From positions 186,001 to 250,000 of the forward strand of contig CANLXH010000001.1 in assembly GCA_947495075.1 (NCBI GenBank): DNA of 64,000 nt, given 5' to 3'. Source of the stretch: an uncultured Croceitalea sp. (GTDB lineage Bacteria; Bacteroidota; Bacteroidia; Flavobacteriales; Flavobacteriaceae). Position 1 is the first letter of the stretch, and every line of letters starts with the position of its first letter. Of this stretch, positions 958-7,794 are shown in pieces. The notes beneath the pieces were generated by a model that searched no databases, was not told the origin of the DNA, and worked only from the letters and a program-made list of their open reading frames with translations. A program made the translations under genes and the position numbers.

Positions 958-2217
958 TTAGTTGTTTTTAGCCCTTGATATTTCATTTTCAGTACTGGTC
1001 TCCGACCTTTCCAACTTCTCCTTCAAAACCGCCATATCATCACCAATTTTTTTATTGATGATTTTAGCATAGTGCTGTGTAGTCCTTAGATTTTTGTGAC
1101 CAAGGATTTTACCAACTGTTTCGATAGGAACGCCGTTAGAAAGCGTGACAGTAGTAGCAAAGGTATGACGAGCCAAATGCGTTGTAAGATTTTTTTTAAT
1201 GCCACAGAGATCAGCTATTTCTTTTAGATAGGCATTTGATTTCTGGTTGCTAAGAACAGGTAAAATACAATGTTCATTAACCACTTTAGGGTGGTCTTTA
1301 TATTTTTCAATAATGCTAAGAGCGGTTGGGAGCAAAGGGATACTTAACTTAGCATTAGTCTTAGTCCGTTTAGCCTCAATCCAAAGATTGCCATCAATGT
1401 TCTTTACTAAATTATCTTGATTCAATTTTTGAACATCGGTATATGCTAGCCCTGTATAACAGCAGAATACAAACATGTCTCTAACAATATCAATTCGAGA
1501 CCACCTTATTTCTAAGTTAATTAAACTTTCTAATTCATCATTGGATAAGAACTCTCTATCTACCCATTTGAATTTTGCCTTAAAATTGTAGAATGGGTCT
1601 CTTGCAATCCAGCCATTTGCAACCGCCATGCGGACAATCTTTTTAAAATTGTTAATGTACTTTAGGGAACTATTGTGGTTACAGTTTTTTACAGACTTCA
1701 TAAAGTAATCAAAGCGAGTAATAAACTTTAAGTCAACATCTTGAATTGGAAAATCTTCTCGTTTGTATTCATGGTTAATGAATTCAGCGATATGGTTTCT
1801 GGTTGTGAAATAGCGTTTCCAAGTACCTATAGCAAACTCCTTATCCACTAGTTTCTTCATTTGGCGATTATGTTCGTCAAAAACTTCTAGAAGCATTTTT
1901 ACCTCCCTATCCTTACCTTGATAAATATTTTTGATGTCAACCGCAGTAAATGGTTTTCCTTCTTCAATGAGCAGATGCTGTATTCTATTTATCTTATGAC
2001 GGATAGTAGTCATAAATTGGTTTAATTCCTCCGCTTCTGCACCTTTGCCTTTTAATTTATTCATTCTAGAGTCCCATTTGGTGGGATCTATTTTTCGATG
2101 TAAACTTATTGATGTACGCCTTCCACCTACCGTAATTCTTATGTATAAGCCAGCTTTTCCGTTCTTATCTCTACGCTCATCTTTTACATAAAATAATGTT
2201 GAAAATGTATTTACCAT
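958..2217 (-). CDS. Site-specific tyrosine recombinase (integrase), Bacteroidetes type
   Basis: At 419 residues this has the usual length for Bacteroidetes integrases. It has an arm-type DNA-binding N-terminus (about 1-90), a SAM-like core-binding domain (about 105-205) and a catalytic domain (about 225-400). Catalytic residues visible are His347 and Arg350 in HLARH, His374 in LGHKN, and the nucleophile Tyr383 in QHYAK. The first catalytic arginine, usually in TGLR, is replaced by Ala258 in TGLAYTDV. Loss of this arginine is known in the family (IntDOT). The gene starts 234 bases from the tmRNA 3' end, which points to ssrA as its attachment target. It is probably functional: no stop or frameshift is seen. 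Confidence 0.93.
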   Translation of the reverse strand: MVNTFSTLFYVKDERRDKNGKAGLYIRITVGGRRTSISLHRKIDPTKWDSRMNKLKGKGAEAEELNQFMTTIRHKINRIQHLLIEEGKPFTAVDIKNIYQGKDREVKMLLEVFDEHNRQMKKLVDKEFAIGTWKRYFTTRNHIAEFINHEYKREDFPIQDVDLKFITRFDYFMKSVKNCNHNSSLKYINNFKKIVRMAVANGWIARDPFYNFKAKFKWVDREFLSNDELESLINLEIRWSRIDIVRDMFVFCCYTGLAYTDVQKLNQDNLVKNIDGNLWIEAKRTKTNAKLSIPLLPTALSIIEKYKDHPKVVNEHCILPVLSNQKSNAYLKEIADLCGIKKNLTTHLARHTFATTVTLSNGVPIETVGKILGHKNLRTTQHYAKIINKKIGDDMAVLKEKLERSETSTENEISRAKNN

Positions 2218-2428: not shown

Positions 2429-2451
2429 GAATTAATTTGGTGTCGTAAAAG

Positions 2452-2847
2452 TGGAGCCGGGGAGAATCGAACTCCCGTCCAAACAAGCAATTATAATACT
2501 TTCTACATGCTTAGTCTTTGTTTAATTTTCGATATGTACCTGACCAAAAACCGCCCAATACATACTTAGCTTCTTAAGATTTTGGTGGTAGTGCCAAAGC
2601 GAACGCTACCCTTGTGTTGACTTTTATGGTGTCTTTAAACGAATCGCCGTCAACAAGGGCTATTCAAAGACATCTCGCTTCACTACCTTGTAGTGACGAG
2701 GCAAATCCTACTATAATTCAGATTATGCGGCAAGAGCGTAATTATTATCGCCAATTAAAAGTGTGAATCCTGAGATTAACGAGCTATAATCCAGCGCTCG
2801 ACATGCTTACATTACCATTGGTCTCGCTGTCAAAACCAGTCGGCCCC
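2452..2847 (-). ncRNA. ssrA: Transfer-messenger RNA (tmRNA)
   Basis: tmRNA rescues ribosomes stalled on broken mRNAs and tags the product for proteolysis. On the minus strand the 5' end GGGGCCG pairs with CGGCTCC at the 3' end to form the acceptor stem, followed by discriminator A and no encoded CCA. The 5' domain continues with the conserved ACTGGTTTTGACAGCGAGAC, and the 3' domain has a T-arm with GTTCGATTC. The tag reading frame at 2723-2752 encodes GDNNYALAA followed by TAA, with resume codon GGC. The length is 396 bases, normal for a one-piece tmRNA. The 3' end is the probable insertion site of the adjacent integrase element. Confidence 0.95.
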
Positions 2848-3008: not shown

Positions 3009-4211
3009 ATGAAGTTCGGAATCATAAAAGAACGTAAGAATCCACCAGATAAAAGAGTTGTTTTGTCCCCTACATTATGCCAAAATGTACTTCATAAACA
3101 TTCTGAAGTTCAAATAGTTGTTGAGTCATCTGATATTCGAGTTTTCTCAGATAAAGAGTATTTAGAGAAAAATATCGAAATTGCTTCTAAGATGGAAAGC
3201 TGTAATGTTCTTTTAGGGGTAAAAGAAGTCCCGATTACTGCTTTGATTCCCAATAAAAAATATTTTTTCTTTTCACATACAATTAAAAAGCAAGTCTATA
3301 ATCGCAATTTGCTAAGGACAATTTTAGATAAGAACATAGAATTATACGATCATGAAGTTATCACTAATATAAAAGGGCAGCGACTAGTTGCATTTGGGAG
3401 ATATGCAGGTATTGTAGGTGCTTACAATGGAATACGTGCCTATGGGCTAAAATTTAATTTATTTGAACTACCAAAAGCCGAGTACCTAATGGACCAAGCT
3501 GCCTTAATTACAGAATTAAACAAAATACAGCTACCAAACATTAAAATACTTCTAACGGGCAGAGGTAGAGTTGGTAATGGCGCCAGAGAGATGTTAGATG
3601 CTATGAACATAAGAAAGGTAAATGTCTCAGAATATTTAGAAGGGGATTATAATGAACCCGTTTATTGCCAAATAGACGCATCAGAATATAACAAGCGCAA
3701 AGATGGTGTAAGGGGGAATAAGGCAGACTTTTTTAAAAATCCTGAAGAATACAAATCTAACTTCTTTCGCTTTGCAAAAGTTTCAGATTTTTATATTGCA
3801 GGTCATTTTTATGGGGATGGAGCTCCTTTTCTTTATACTCGTGAAGATGCAAAGCATTCAGAATTTAAAATTAAAGTGGTTGCCGATGTAAGTTGTGATA
3901 TAGACGGACCAGTTGCCACAACAATTAGGTCCTCTACAATTGCAGATCCTATTTATGGTTATGAACCACAATCAGAAACAGAAATAGATTATAAGGACAA
4001 AAATGCGATTGCCGTTATGGCGGTAGACAATTTACCTGCAGAATTGCCGCGCGATGCAAGTGATGGTTTTGGAGAAGCTTTTTCAAAATATGTAATACCT
4101 GCTTTTTTTAATGGAGACAAAGACGGTATTTTAGAAAGGGCAAGGATGACCTCTAATGGAAAACTGACAAAAAGATATAAGTATCTTCAAGATTACGTAG
4201 ACGGAAAATAA
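3009..4211 (+). CDS. Saccharopine/alanine dehydrogenase-like NAD(P)-dependent oxidoreductase
   Basis: The 400-residue protein has the AlaDH/PNT-type two-domain architecture. An N-terminal KERKNPPDKRVVLSP segment and FFFSHTIKKQ (about 86-95) resemble the lysine-ketoglutarate reductase part of saccharopine dehydrogenases. GRGRVG at 184-189 is a Rossmann nucleotide-binding loop. The likely reaction is NAD(P)-linked oxidative or reductive amination, possibly in lysine metabolism, but the substrate is inferred from resemblance only. It starts 161 bases from the divergent tmRNA gene. The downstream hydroxylase gene follows after about 60 bases, so it could share that transcript, though it looks more AT-rich. 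Confidence 0.8.
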   Translation: MKFGIIKERKNPPDKRVVLSPTLCQNVLHKHSEVQIVVESSDIRVFSDKEYLEKNIEIASKMESCNVLLGVKEVPITALIPNKKYFFFSHTIKKQVYNRNLLRTILDKNIELYDHEVITNIKGQRLVAFGRYAGIVGAYNGIRAYGLKFNLFELPKAEYLMDQAALITELNKIQLPNIKILLTGRGRVGNGAREMLDAMNIRKVNVSEYLEGDYNEPVYCQIDASEYNKRKDGVRGNKADFFKNPEEYKSNFFRFAKVSDFYIAGHFYGDGAPFLYTREDAKHSEFKIKVVADVSCDIDGPVATTIRSSTIADPIYGYEPQSETEIDYKDKNAIAVMAVDNLPAELPRDASDGFGEAFSKYVIPAFFNGDKDGILERARMTSNGKLTKRYKYLQDYVDGK

Positions 4212-4273
4212 AATTGTAATGCCATGTGTAATTCAACTGGAGTGGTATCGTTTAAAAAGTATTGTACTTTCTT

Positions 4274-5005
4274 ATGATGGATTCGGTCATAGCATATATT
4301 TTCTCCAAATGGTGGTGGACCTTCCTGTTTACTCTATTGTTTTTTACAGTACTTTATTTTGGAGGAATACTCCTCATGAATTCCATATTGGGTATTTTAA
4401 AACAAAAGAAAGTTCTGACACCTATTGTTAATTTCAAAAGACAGGGTCAGGAAAAGATAGAGATTAAAAACTCTATGGTTAGTATAGTCATATTCGCGTT
4501 GCAAGCAATTCCTTTACAAATGTTGTATCAAAATGGATTTATACAATTCAGTGAAAACGCAACATTACACCTGCTTTGGGAGATTCCTTTCCTGTTCCTT
4601 TGGAACGAGGTCTATTTTTATGCAAGTCATTGGCTACTGCACCAAAAATGGTTTTTCACAAAAGTGCATTATATACATCATGCATCGCGTGAACCAACCC
4701 TATATTCGGTATATAGTTTTCATTGGTTCGAAGCTTTTCTATTGGGCGCCGTAATTTTTTTACCGATACTTGTTCATCCTTTCCATATAGTGTCAGTCCT
4801 AAGTTTGCCCATTATAAGCATTACACTAAATTTTTTGGGACATTGGAACCATGAATGGGAAACAACAAAGAATTATGATTATCTAGGTAGGTTTACATTC
4901 CGACATACGATGCACCATAAATGGAGCATGGGAAATTTTGGATTTATGCTACCTTACCTCGATATAATTTTTAATACGGCCACACCAAAAAGAAAAATGA
5001 AATGA
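4274..5005 (+). CDS. Sterol desaturase / fatty acid hydroxylase family membrane protein
   Basis: This is an integral membrane di-iron oxygenase-type protein. Counting from a possible TTG start at 4262, the histidine clusters are HxxxH at 123-127, HxxHH at 136-140, H194/H197 in GHWNHE, and HxxHH at 215-219, the eight-histidine set of the superfamily. Hydrophobic stretches surround them. I prefer the ATG at 4274 (or 4277) over the TTG at 4262. The stop overlaps the next gene's start in ATGA, so translation is probably coupled. Family members hydroxylate or desaturate lipids. Here the partner synthase suggests an acyl chain as substrate, which is inference. Confidence 0.85.
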   Translation: MMDSVIAYIFSKWWWTFLFTLLFFTVLYFGGILLMNSILGILKQKKVLTPIVNFKRQGQEKIEIKNSMVSIVIFALQAIPLQMLYQNGFIQFSENATLHLLWEIPFLFLWNEVYFYASHWLLHQKWFFTKVHYIHHASREPTLYSVYSFHWFEAFLLGAVIFLPILVHPFHIVSVLSLPIISITLNFLGHWNHEWETTKNYDYLGRFTFRHTMHHKWSMGNFGFMLPYLDIIFNTATPKRKMK

Positions 5006-6882
5006 GTAGAGCTGTTTATATAAATGCCATTGGAAAATATTTGCCTGGCAAGCCCATAGGTAATGACGAAATGGAAGAATATTTGGGTATGATCAACGGG
5101 AAACCCTCCCGGAGCAAAAACAGGATGTTGGCCCAAAACGGTATTAAAAACAGATATTATGCGCTAGACAAGTTGCAGAAAACCACAGAATCTGTCTCTG
5201 GTATGGCCATAAAGGCAATTAATGCCTGTATGGAAAGAAGTGATATTGATAAGGAATCCATCCAATTTTTAAGTGCGGCCACCACGCAAGGAGACCTTCC
5301 CATCCCAGGTTTTGCTAGTATGGTGCATGGTGGTTCAGAACTGCCTGTCTGCGAAATATCAAGTCATCAAAGTGTATGTGCCGCGGGAATGATGGCCATA
5401 AAGAATGCATTTATGCATGTGCAGTCTGGAGAAGCGGATAATGCCATTGCCTGCGCTGGGGAATTAGCGAGTAGAATGTTTAAGGCAGAACGTTTTGAAA
5501 ATCAAGATTCAATACATGAGAAAGGTTCACTTCCTTTAGAGACAGATTTTTTAAGATGGATGCTCTCCGATGGGGCTGGTGCTTTTTTAATGCAGCAGAA
5601 ACCTGCGACGGATACATTTTCCTTAAAAATAGAATGGATTGAACTAAAATCACACGCAACTCTTTTTGAACCATGCATGTATACTGGTATGAACAAGACA
5701 GCAGATGGCCAGCAGGGTCAATCGTGGATTGATTATAAAAGTTTTAGTGATGCGGACAAGGCCGGGGCAATTAATCTAAAACAAGACATTAGACTTGTAA
5801 ATCATATCGTAGGTCTAGGAGTGCAGCATTTTTTTCAGCTGATTGATGAGTCAAAGATGAATCCCAAAAAGCTAGATTGGTTCCTTTGCCACTATTCCTC
5901 CGAATATTTTAAGCAACCAATACTTGATCTATTGAACAAGGGAGGCGTTGAAATTCCTGAAGAAAAATGGTTTACGAACCTGCATTCCAAGGGCAATACC
6001 GGATCTGCTTCCATATTTATTATGCTAGAAGAACTATTGAACACTAAAGATTTAAAAGATGGTCAAAAGATTCTTTGTATGGTCCCGGAAAGTGGGCGTT
6101 TTATTACTTCGTTCATGTTACTTACAGTAGTTGGCCCTACAAGCAAAAAAAAGGAATTACCGCTTACAGCGAAAGATGAGATTCTGGCCCCTTTAATCTC
6201 AACAGAAGGTAAACCCATACAAGAATGGTTGGTAAGAGGCCTTACCTCTGTCTGGGTAGATTTTGAAAATGACCTACGTACCGTGCCGATTATTAAAAAG
6301 ATCTATAATGGTACAATTACTCTTGAAGACTATCGGTTGCTGCTTTTGAACCTACGTCAACAGGTGGTAGATGGATCGCAATGGATTGCCAGGGCCGCTT
6401 CTAACGTTAGTATGGAATATTTTGATGTACGCTCTTCCTTTATTTCCCATTCGAGGGACGAGCACCGCGATTACCAAATGCTAGAGAGGAACTATATTAA
6501 CTGCGGGGGCATAAAAGATGATCTTTACCAAGGTGAAAAGAATGTAGGTAGCGAGGCCTTAAGTGCCTTTATGTTCCACACGGCAAGCCAACCAAATCCC
6601 TTTGCTCTGCTTGGGGCAATGTTTATCATTGAAGGCCTTGGCAATAGAATTGCTGGTAAATGGGGTAGAGCTGTACAGCAATTATTAAATTTGAATGATG
6701 ATCAGGTCTCTTTCTTTACCTATCATGAGATCAGTGATAGTAATGAAAACCATTTCGAAAGGTTCGAAAATGCAATAAATTCTGATGCGTTGACCCAAGA
6801 TTTGGCAAAAAAAATTCTGAAGACGGCCAAGGTCGTTGCCAAATTGTACCGCATGCAATTGGCAGAGATTGGTAACTATTAA
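5002..6882 (+). CDS. Ketoacyl-ACP synthase III fused to a heme-oxygenase-like (di-iron?) domain
   Basis: The N-terminal part (about 1-380) is a thiolase-fold KAS III-like synthase with a complete triad: Cys126 in SVCAAG, His297 in CHYSSE and Asn332 in KGNTGSAS. Such enzymes condense acyl-CoA or acyl-ACP with malonyl-ACP or another acyl chain. The C-terminal part (about 395-626) is all-helical and resembles iron-containing redox enzymes of the heme-oxygenase-like fold. Candidate metal ligands are Glu487/His488 in SRDEHRD, Glu544 in FIIEG, His575, Asp579 and His584 in YHEISDSNENHFE. Free-standing KAS III enzymes have roughly 320-350 residues, so this is a true fusion. It lies in one transcript with the hydroxylase before it and the unknown gene 15 bases after it. 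Confidence 0.85.
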   Translation: MSRAVYINAIGKYLPGKPIGNDEMEEYLGMINGKPSRSKNRMLAQNGIKNRYYALDKLQKTTESVSGMAIKAINACMERSDIDKESIQFLSAATTQGDLPIPGFASMVHGGSELPVCEISSHQSVCAAGMMAIKNAFMHVQSGEADNAIACAGELASRMFKAERFENQDSIHEKGSLPLETDFLRWMLSDGAGAFLMQQKPATDTFSLKIEWIELKSHATLFEPCMYTGMNKTADGQQGQSWIDYKSFSDADKAGAINLKQDIRLVNHIVGLGVQHFFQLIDESKMNPKKLDWFLCHYSSEYFKQPILDLLNKGGVEIPEEKWFTNLHSKGNTGSASIFIMLEELLNTKDLKDGQKILCMVPESGRFITSFMLLTVVGPTSKKKELPLTAKDEILAPLISTEGKPIQEWLVRGLTSVWVDFENDLRTVPIIKKIYNGTITLEDYRLLLLNLRQQVVDGSQWIARAASNVSMEYFDVRSSFISHSRDEHRDYQMLERNYINCGGIKDDLYQGEKNVGSEALSAFMFHTASQPNPFALLGAMFIIEGLGNRIAGKWGRAVQQLLNLNDDQVSFFTYHEISDSNENHFERFENAINSDALTQDLAKKILKTAKVVAKLYRMQLAEIGNY

Positions 6883-6897
6883 TACCTTTAATGACCT

Positions 6898-7794
6898 ATG
6901 TTGCATAAGAGTGAATATTTTGAGGCATTGGAGAACAATCCAAAAGATCCAAGTCATTGGCATACACTTTATTTAGACAAAAGTATTCCCTTTAGCCCTG
7001 ATGCCAAGGCAGCCTTTCTTTATGATTCGGGGAGAAAATCCAGACAGTTCCTGTTACCTTTTGTTAGGGTTTTTTCAAGATTGTTTATTATTCTGATGCA
7101 AATTTTCAAGGCTATTTCACCAAACTTGATTAATGCTCCGAAAATGCTGCATCGGTCTTTGTATTTTGGAATGAAATATATGGTCACCCCCGAAGCTAAT
7201 TTCTTAATATTGAGACATTTTTACCTTGGTTCCGAAATTTTGAAGTTTATCAAGGATAATGTAAGGGGCTCTGAGGAAATTCCCATGAATCCCTTAAAGC
7301 CTATATCGGTGGGCGAAGTAAGGAATAATTTGTTCTTAGATCATGATTTAAACTTGTATAATTTTATCATAAACCTTAATAAAGCTATCGCTGATAAGGG
7401 ATTGAAAATAAAAAAAGTCAATAAACCGGATTTTAGTGCTTTGACCATTGGAGAAATTCCCTTTGAAGATTTTAGAGACAGGTGGTCCAACTTCATAGAT
7501 CTATCCACGGCGATTGAAATTTTTACTCCAGTTTACCAATTTTTTCTAACAGACAATGATTTTTGGAGAGCCAGCAATTCGTTGCAATTGGATGAAGTTA
7601 TCGGTATTTATGCTACCACCATTATGGACTGCCCCGAAAAATTGATTGGATTGAACAATAAGCATCCTATGATACCTTTACCCACCTATGGAGCGGCCTT
7701 TCGCCTCACTTTACATGGTCTTTCTACTGAGATATTACATGCACTTTTGGTAGGCGCAAAAAAACAAATGGTCAATGTTCCAGAAGCATTATAG
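6898..7794 (+). CDS. Unrecognised protein linked to the KAS III fusion
   Basis: I do not recognise this 298-residue protein family. The N-terminus is soluble with SHWHTLYLDKS. A hydrophobic segment near residues 53-75 (LLPFVRVFSRLFIILMQIF) may bind a membrane. A second conserved-looking stretch, TPEANFLILRHFYLGSEIL, follows near 100-120, and histidines recur (HRS, RHFY, DHD, LHGLSTEILH). It follows the KAS III fusion by 15 bases and is surely co-transcribed. A role as partner or modifying enzyme for the same acyl product is inferred from position alone. No signal peptide is seen. Confidence 0.75.
   Translation: MLHKSEYFEALENNPKDPSHWHTLYLDKSIPFSPDAKAAFLYDSGRKSRQFLLPFVRVFSRLFIILMQIFKAISPNLINAPKMLHRSLYFGMKYMVTPEANFLILRHFYLGSEILKFIKDNVRGSEEIPMNPLKPISVGEVRNNLFLDHDLNLYNFIINLNKAIADKGLKIKKVNKPDFSALTIGEIPFEDFRDRWSNFIDLSTAIEIFTPVYQFFLTDNDFWRASNSLQLDEVIGIYATTIMDCPEKLIGLNNKHPMIPLPTYGAAFRLTLHGLSTEILHALLVGAKKQMVNVPEAL

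What the first reader, a model, noticed from the sequence alone, without database searches (positions are those of the whole stretch)
5002..6882. KAS III fused to a heme-oxygenase-like oxidase domain
One polypeptide joins a complete Cys-His-Asn ketoacyl synthase with a helical domain carrying Glu/His/Asp candidates for a di-iron centre. Heme-oxygenase-like di-iron oxidases such as UndA convert fatty acids to alkenes, and others hydroxylate or cleave N-bearing substrates. A condense-then-oxidise enzyme could make a terminally modified or shortened acyl product in a single step.
Basis: partly seen in the sequence, partly recalled or inferred. Interest (0 to 1): 0.8.

Follow-up and report, generated by a model that had tools for sequence, protein, structure and literature searches.

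The report
Ring-forming ketosynthase fused to iron-oxidase domain
Many bacteria carry one protein that joins a fatty-acid-condensing enzyme, related to those that build resorcinol-type lipids, to a domain that looks like an oxygen-using iron enzyme, and it nearly always sits beside a gene of unknown function, which points to an unexplored way of making ring-shaped lipids.

Summary
Window 5002-6882 (+) encodes a 626-aa fusion of a KAS III-type ketosynthase (1-378) and a heme-oxygenase-fold domain (394-626). Of 80 relatives read (of 201 found), 78 keep the fused ORF; the others are a broken ORF and a contig edge. The ketosynthase is not FabH-like: its nearest named family is StlD/DarB, which makes 2,5-dialkylcyclohexane-1,3-diones, but it scores under that family's cut-off and groups apart from true DarB. 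The second domain folds like 3DDE, CADD and UndA. It keeps five of six motif positions of heme-oxygenase-like dimetal oxidases; the second ligand, normally His, is Asp490, and an extra His483 is invariant seven residues earlier. DUF6999, of unknown fold and function, follows in 79 of 80 loci; a fatty-acid-hydroxylase-family gene precedes in 56. In a Pseudoalteromonas plasmid the three genes are separate, in the same order. A DarA-like gene, present beside all 22 DarB loci checked, was not found in the window's genome or in 4 of 6 other fusion genomes. Best reading: the ketosynthase makes a (carboxy)cyclohexanedione and the oxidase domain oxidises it, perhaps by UndA-like oxidative decarboxylation. 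Substrate and metal geometry are unproven. No description in print was seen in the searches run.

The parts
5002..6882 (+). KS::HO-like fusion protein, 626 aa
   Evidence: 78 of 80 relatives with the same fused ORF
5002..6135 (+). Ketosynthase domain, nearest to StlD/DarB (residues 1-378)
   Evidence: NF005293 E 5.1e-131, under its cut-off; 5gk0 StlD E 4e-86; tree
5377..5379 (+). Codon of KS active-site Cys126 (with His297 at 5890-5892 and Asn332 at 5995-5997)
   Evidence: 79 of 79 invariant; assignment as the triad is recalled family knowledge
6136..6180 (+). Linker, residues 379-393; the stretch from position 378 to 393 is 12-17 residues in 78 of 79 fusions, 51 in one
6181..6879 (+). Heme-oxygenase-like domain (residues 394-626)
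   Evidence: PF14518 at E <= 0.01 in 80 of 81 rows; AF2 mean pLDDT 90.2; Foldseek 3dde, CADD, TenA, UndA
6448..6471 (+). First metal-site helix: His483, Glu487, (His488), Asp490; Asp490 sits where other HDOs have His
   Evidence: His483/Glu487/Asp490 fall within 60 degrees on a helix wheel, His488 does not
6631..6633 (+). Codon of Glu544, second-helix ligand candidate
   Evidence: 81 of 81
6724..6753 (+). His575, Asp579, His584, third-helix ligand candidates; two extra residues between Asp579 and His584 in 42 of 81 rows, the window's included
4262..5005 (+). Fatty-acid-hydroxylase superfamily protein (PF04116); ATG at 4274 is the likelier start (judgement); overlaps the fusion gene by 4 bases
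   Evidence: E 5.2e-19; a homologue upstream within 1.5 kb in 56 of 80 loci
6898..7794 (+). DUF6999 protein (PF22523), near-constant partner
   Evidence: E 8.5e-118; downstream within 1.5 kb in 79 of 80 loci; AF2 pLDDT 87.5, best PDB match E 0.72

Best explanation
A two-step enzyme for a ring-forming lipid pathway. The StlD/DarB-related KS joins a beta-ketoacyl thioester to an alpha,beta-unsaturated acyl thioester and closes a (4-carboxy-)2,5-dialkylcyclohexane-1,3-dione (inferred from its relatives). The fused heme-oxygenase-like oxidase, using a dimetal (probably di-iron) site and O2, then oxidises that ring: either to a dialkylresorcinol, doing the work of the flavodoxin-like DarA, or to a hydroxylated/quinoid ring. 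One concrete route is UndA-like: take the hydrogen beta to the 4-carboxylate, lose CO2, and let the resulting cyclohex-4-ene-1,3-dione tautomerise to a resorcinol. DUF6999 acts in the same pathway, and the hydroxylase-family protein, where present, tailors the product. Shown: fusion, families, fold, conservation, gene order. Inferred: substrate, metal content, chemistry, roles of the neighbours.
For: KS nearest to StlD/DarB, triad intact. The fold is that of dimetal oxidases among others, and five of six motif positions are kept. No His in the first helix in 75 of 79 rows, against a heme site. Pseudoalteromonas sp. THAF3 encodes KS, HO and DUF6999 as three adjacent genes in the same order, so the domains belong together. 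A DarA-like gene lies beside the KS in 22 of 22 stand-alone DarB loci, and none was found among the ORFs of the fusion loci. DarA-like is not found in the window's genome or in two Paenibacillus, Pedobacter caeni and Sphingobacterium mizutaii; Maribacter halichondriae and Chitinophaga sp. YR627 rang as positive controls. In kin of this KS the nearby oxidase differs: an FMO-like flavoprotein near KS and a weak DUF6999 in G507, an FAD monooxygenase two genes downstream in Streptomyces. A passage of PMC5515871 says DarB makes 4-carboxy-2,5-dialkylcyclohexane-1,3-diones; a table in PMC3949708 names DarA the DAR aromatase.
Against: The KS scores 437.2 and 400.2 bits on the StlD/DarB and DarB models (cut-offs 450, 550), whereas a true DarB scores 594.3 and 646.4; the Pseudoalteromonas and Streptomyces kin score lower still on the first (372.1, 381.9). 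The second canonical ligand is Asp, so the metal site may be different or weak. Two extra residues lie in the third helix in the window's clade, where model confidence drops to 64 (block 181-190). TenA and true heme oxygenases also match the fold. Two of six other fusion genomes have DarA-like. No acyl carrier, acyl-supply or electron-donor gene is conserved beside it: apart from the core genes no cluster reaches more than 8 of 81 loci.
Confidence: 0.42

Rival explanations
1. The KS makes a linear condensed acyl product and the oxidase decarboxylates, cleaves or hydroxylates it.
For: HDOs such as UndA act on fatty acids (review PMC13108848, part 1 of 6 read); KAS III enzymes normally make linear beta-ketoacyl chains (recalled); a fatty-acid-hydroxylase-family gene lies upstream; the KS falls under the StlD/DarB cut-offs.
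Against: StlD/DarB is still far ahead of the best FabH-type model (E 5.1e-131 against 5.1e-25), and StlD is the best solved relative.
Confidence: 0.22
2. The oxidase acts before condensation, for example desaturating an acyl thioester to supply the enoyl partner for the KS, with no action on the ring.
For: HDOs PolF and MboA can desaturate (PMC13108848); the DarB reaction uses a 2-enoyl partner (passage of PMC5515871).
Against: Enoyl thioesters are already made by fatty acid synthesis and beta-oxidation (recalled); flavin monooxygenases near kin KS suggest a later tailoring step.
Confidence: 0.12
3. The heme-oxygenase-like domain is catalytic without metal, or only structural, as in TenA/PqqC-type members of the fold.
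For: TenA, PqqC and heme oxygenase structures also match the model; the second canonical ligand is lost.
Against: His483, Glu487, Asp490, Glu544, His575, Asp579 and His584 are invariant in 79 of 79 fusions, and the third-helix His/Asp/His set is shared with stand-alone HDO-type proteins (23, 24 and 24 of 24 rows).
Confidence: 0.15
4. It is a heme-binding heme oxygenase fused to a KS.
For: Weak Heme_oxygenase (PF01126) hits in 3 of 81 rows; heme oxygenases among the fold matches.
Against: No first-helix His in 75 of 79 rows (that the proximal heme ligand lies there is recalled); PF14518 in 80 of 81.
Confidence: 0.03

Closest known systems
StlD / DarB ketosynthases (stilbene, dialkylresorcinol, flexirubin pathways)
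   Same: Nearest named KS family, triad, length of the KS domain, occurrence in Bacteroidota
   Different: Separate group in the tree and under the family cut-offs; fused to an oxidase; neighbour DUF6999 instead of a DarA-like gene; 37-45% identity to most stand-alone KS matches in the family
Heme-oxygenase-like dimetal oxidases (UndA, CADD, SznF, BesC, FlcD)
   Same: Fold; Glu487, Glu544, His575, Asp579, His584 at motif positions
   Different: Asp490 in place of the second-ligand His; extra invariant His483; joined to a ketosynthase
3DDE (Sden_3740, Shewanella denitrificans), uncharacterised structure
   Same: Best structural match, TM 0.83; the one PDB sequence-profile hit with E below 0.001
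   Different: Not fused to a KS (239-residue chain); carries the His that the fusion lacks (alignment)
FlcD (HDO with deviant motif, passages of PMC11363339)
   Same: Precedent for a departure from E-H-E-H-(D/E)-H
   Different: FlcD loses the last two ligands; here the second changes from His to Asp

Membership tests
StlD/DarB ketosynthase | NCBIfam cut-offs: NF005293 (450 bits), NF053539 DarB (550 bits) | tested here: not met
   437.2 and 400.2 bits; a true DarB, L017, scores 594.3 and 646.4
StlD/DarB ketosynthase | Cys-His-Asn triad | tested here: met
   79 of 79
StlD/DarB ketosynthase | Groups with Flavobacteriaceae DarB in a tree | tested here: not met
   13 DarB rows form one group (99/98); the 22 fusion rows with the Pseudoalteromonas and Streptomyces KS form another (96/94). 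No characterised StlD or DarB was in the tree.
StlD/DarB ketosynthase | Forms a cyclohexanedione | not testable with these tools
   needs an enzyme assay
Dialkylresorcinol (darAB) pathway | DarA-like gene present | tested here: not met
   no match in the own genome, 2 of 6 other fusion genomes positive; the query is the gene beside DarB in L017, called DarA by position and recall, with no NCBIfam hit at E <= 1e-20
Heme-oxygenase-like dimetal oxidase (HDO) | Heme-oxygenase-like helical fold | tested here: met
Heme-oxygenase-like dimetal oxidase (HDO) | Pfam PF14518 gathering score | tested here: met
   34.3 bits against 28.9; the separate Pseudoalteromonas HO protein has no PF14518 hit at E <= 0.1
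Heme-oxygenase-like dimetal oxidase (HDO) | E-H-E-H-(D/E)-H ligand motif (3H/3C) | tested here: not met
   E-D-E-H-D-H in 81 of 81 rows, plus His483; five of six positions kept
Heme-oxygenase-like dimetal oxidase (HDO) | Binds two metals, activates O2 | not testable with these tools
   no coordinates of the model and no assay
Canonical heme oxygenase | Proximal His in the first helix (recalled) | tested here: not met
   no His at 404-426 in 75 of 79 rows, the window's included

The most novel reading that the evidence does not exclude
A one-protein, O2-dependent route to aromatic lipids: the KS closes a 4-carboxy-cyclohexanedione and the fused oxidase, with a new ligand set (His483/Glu487/Asp490 - Glu544 - His575/Asp579/His584), aromatises it by oxidative decarboxylation, replacing the flavodoxin-like DarA, while DUF6999, a helical protein without a known fold match and with many invariant His/Asp/Glu, performs a further unknown step of a new lipid family spread over Bacteroidota, Bacillota and Gammaproteobacteria.
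Probability: 0.2. Interest if true: 0.85.

Novelty: new variant of a known kind. Interest (0 to 1): 0.6.

Why it matters
If right, HDO chemistry extends to oxidation of a polyketide-type ring, with a non-canonical metal site, and a widespread two-gene core (fusion plus DUF6999; the genome scan found 201 relatives of the HO domain, and 78 of the 80 returned are intact fusions) would define an uncharacterised lipid class. In four of the eight Flavobacteriaceae genomes with the fusion a separate DarB-like KS is also present, so the two systems coexist and are not the same.

Tried and rejected
FabH-like KAS III: rejected, the StlD/DarB model is ahead by about 106 orders of magnitude in E-value. 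Heme oxygenase proper: unlikely. Upstream AlaDH-like gene 3009-4211 as operon member: unlikely; in eight loci including the window it sits by the tmRNA gene, and in L050 it stays there while the fusion lies about 4 kb away. Streptomyces 321-aa neighbour as a hidden DUF6999: not supported (no Pfam hit; hhalign probability 0.1). DUF6999 structure search: no informative match. Plasmid search with DUF6999: one record. A search for DUF6999 centred on Proteobacteria was not possible; the control genome Caulobacter vibrioides rang for both DUF6999 and PF14518 but could not be opened.

Bias and limits: the genome scan selected on two peptide patterns, one containing Glu487, His488 and Asp490, so their invariance in the 80 loci is partly selected; the Pseudoalteromonas copy, found by tblastn, keeps them too. 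Glu544, His575, Asp579 and His584 lie outside the patterns. Only 80 of 201 relatives were returned. One search aligned 12 of 81 fusion rows, the Pseudoalteromonas and Vibrio rows and 24 stand-alone rows; of the 27 loci, L144 and L160 gave no row and L147 is the window itself. Of the 24, L137 is probably a wrong-frame ORF and L155 is truncated; both stay in the counts. The DUF6999 alignment used 59 of the 80 copies at hand. Two structure models were made, each of one domain or protein alone; none of the whole fusion or a dimer.

Full report
What is there. The ORF at 5002-6882 (+) is 626 aa. It starts four bases inside the upstream gene (4262-5005, PF04116 fatty-acid-hydroxylase superfamily, E 5.2e-19) and is followed after 15 bases by a DUF6999 gene (6898-7794, PF22523, E 8.5e-118). 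The genome (3.73 Mb, 15 contigs) gave two matches to the protein: this one and a weak partial one (E 5.4e-6, 26% over residues 9-157). Its one PF14518 match is this protein.

The ketosynthase. Residues 5-377 match NCBIfam StlD/DarB (E 5.1e-131, 437.2 bits; cut-off 450) and the narrower DarB model (400.2 bits; cut-off 550), ahead of the best FabH-type model (E 5.1e-25); residues 1-377 match solved StlD 5gk0 (E 4e-86). A stand-alone DarB (L017) scores 594.3 and 646.4 bits on the same two models, so the fusion KS is kin, not a plain member. Cys126, His297 and Asn332 are invariant in 79 of 79 full fusions. In a 40-row tree the 13 DarB rows form one group (99/98); the 22 fusion rows with the KS of Pseudoalteromonas (separate HO gene) and of a Streptomyces plasmid form another (96/94), which the long-branched KS of genome G507 joins at 80/95. 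Of 299 family genomes searched, 58 had a match at E <= 1e-10 and 8 had it over the whole fusion; four of these eight also had a separate KS match.

The oxidase domain. An AF2 model from 81 rows (mean pLDDT 90.2, pTM 0.89) matches 3dde (TM 0.83), CADD (0.75-0.76), TenA, heme oxygenases and UndA (0.62-0.66); of 746 matches with E <= 10, 71 have E <= 0.001 (best 50 seen). PF14518 is found at E <= 0.01 in 80 of 81 rows. The canonical motif is E-H-E-H-(D/E)-H (passages of PMC11363339), three His and three carboxylates (PMC13108848, first of six parts and passages). Alignment with 24 stand-alone rows puts Glu487 on the first Glu (E in 21), Asp490 on the second ligand (His in 22), Glu544 on Glu (24), His575 on His (23), Asp579 on Asp (24) and His584 on His (24); a profile comparison with a Vibrio HDO gives the same register. 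A first HMMER alignment with 3dde was one residue off on this helix, with a gap, so the register there is good but not beyond doubt. His483 is invariant and on the same helix face as Glu487 and Asp490, so a 3H/4C-type set His483, Glu487, Asp490, Glu544, His575, Asp579, His584 is possible (inference). In 39 of 81 rows the third helix reads H-x3-D-x2-H; in 42, with the window, two residues are added between Asp579 and His584. Distances could not be measured, since no coordinates are given.

Gene company. A scan of GTDB genomes found 201 relatives of the HO domain, of which 80 were returned: mostly Bacteroidota (Maribacter, Flagellimonas, Aquimarina, Chitinophaga, Niastella, Pedobacter, Sphingobacterium, Echinicola and others, one MAG labelled Kapaibacterium) and two Paenibacillus. 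KS and HO are one ORF in 78 of 80. DUF6999 follows within 1.5 kb in 79 of 80 (in L085 the contig ends about 460 bases after the fusion; in L084 DUF6999 is in two ORFs). An FAH-family gene precedes within 1.5 kb in 56 of 80 and is missing in all Chitinophaga, Niastella and Paenibacillus loci with room upstream and in some Muricauda, Flagellimonas and other loci. Apart from these no gene cluster reaches more than 8 of 81 loci. Among 296 phylum genomes four have the HO domain; the same four have the strong DUF6999 matches in a 395-genome search, and the fifth, weak one (G507, 32.2 bits) lies near a KS and an FMO-like flavoprotein, with no HO-domain ORF seen in the stretch. In Pseudoalteromonas sp. 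THAF3 KS, HO and DUF6999 are three neighbouring genes in the same order: the fusion joined partners that already sat side by side, or was later split. DUF6999 is a helical protein with no fold match (pLDDT 87.5; best PDB E 0.72); of 14 His/Asp/Glu/Arg positions counted in 59 rows, 12 are invariant (H273, E278 and H281 among them) and two vary only between Glu and Asp.

Mechanism. DarB is reported to give 4-carboxy-2,5-dialkylcyclohexane-1,3-diones (passage of PMC5515871) and DarA is named the aromatase (table in PMC3949708). The gene taken here as DarA is the 307-aa flavodoxin-like protein (recalled description) beside DarB in L017; a relative lies beside the KS in 22 of 22 stand-alone DarB loci, and none among the ORFs of the fusion loci. 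The window's genome has no match to it; of six other fusion genomes four lack it and two have it, one of them Maribacter halichondriae, reported flexirubin-positive (passages of PMC10942906). So the fusion does not depend on DarA. The simplest joint reading is that the HO domain oxidises the ring the KS makes. UndA-like removal of the hydrogen beta to the carboxylate with loss of CO2 would give the resorcinol directly; hydroxylation is equally open. This step is inference.

Print. No listed title or abstract in the searches (open-licence PMC texts only) describes the fusion or DUF6999; DUF6999 gave no paper. The one paper listed for heme oxygenase-like plus ketosynthase concerns SznF-type enzymes (passages of PMC10849742). 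The 2026 HDO review has no hit for fused, fusion, polyketide or aromatiz-. Subscription papers are mostly not held, so this is no proof of absence. Public annotation names parts of it (beta-ketoacyl-ACP synthase III, iron-containing redox enzyme family protein, hypothetical protein).

Noticed in passing
window 2451-2847 (-) and 958-2217 (-): tmRNA gene (tag GDNNYALAA) beside an integrase-family gene; a tmRNA gene lies near the fusion locus also in L032, L033, L044, L045, L046, L049 and L050 (7 of 15 loci scanned), suggesting a shared location and perhaps an integration site.
   Followed up: partly
window 6898-7794: DUF6999: helical protein without a PDB fold match, with invariant H85, R106, H107, H149, D150, D221, D232, E233, H256, H273, E278, H281 in 59 of 59 rows; perhaps a metal enzyme itself.
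   Followed up: partly
L132 7703-15349: Streptomyces plasmid cluster with a KS of the fusion group, ACPs, FabF, FabG, FAD monooxygenase, P450 and SCP2 protein: a possible related product.
   Followed up: no
L126 1404-5132 (-): DUF6999-like gene, DarB-like KS and FMO-like flavoprotein on one strand, without an HO domain seen nearby.
   Followed up: partly
control genome Caulobacter vibrioides: Both DUF6999 and PF14518 ring; whether they neighbour a KS could not be seen.
   Followed up: no
L133 5822-9425: Vibrio plasmid block: thermostable hemolysin-annotated gene, AMP-binding protein, stand-alone HDO, SDR; AMP-binding annotation also lies under HDO matches in four Pseudoalteromonas records.
   Followed up: no
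L064 9613-10341, L079 9893-10606: Sinomicrobium loci have a second, distant fatty-acid-hydroxylase-family gene downstream of DUF6999 (25% identity).
   Followed up: no
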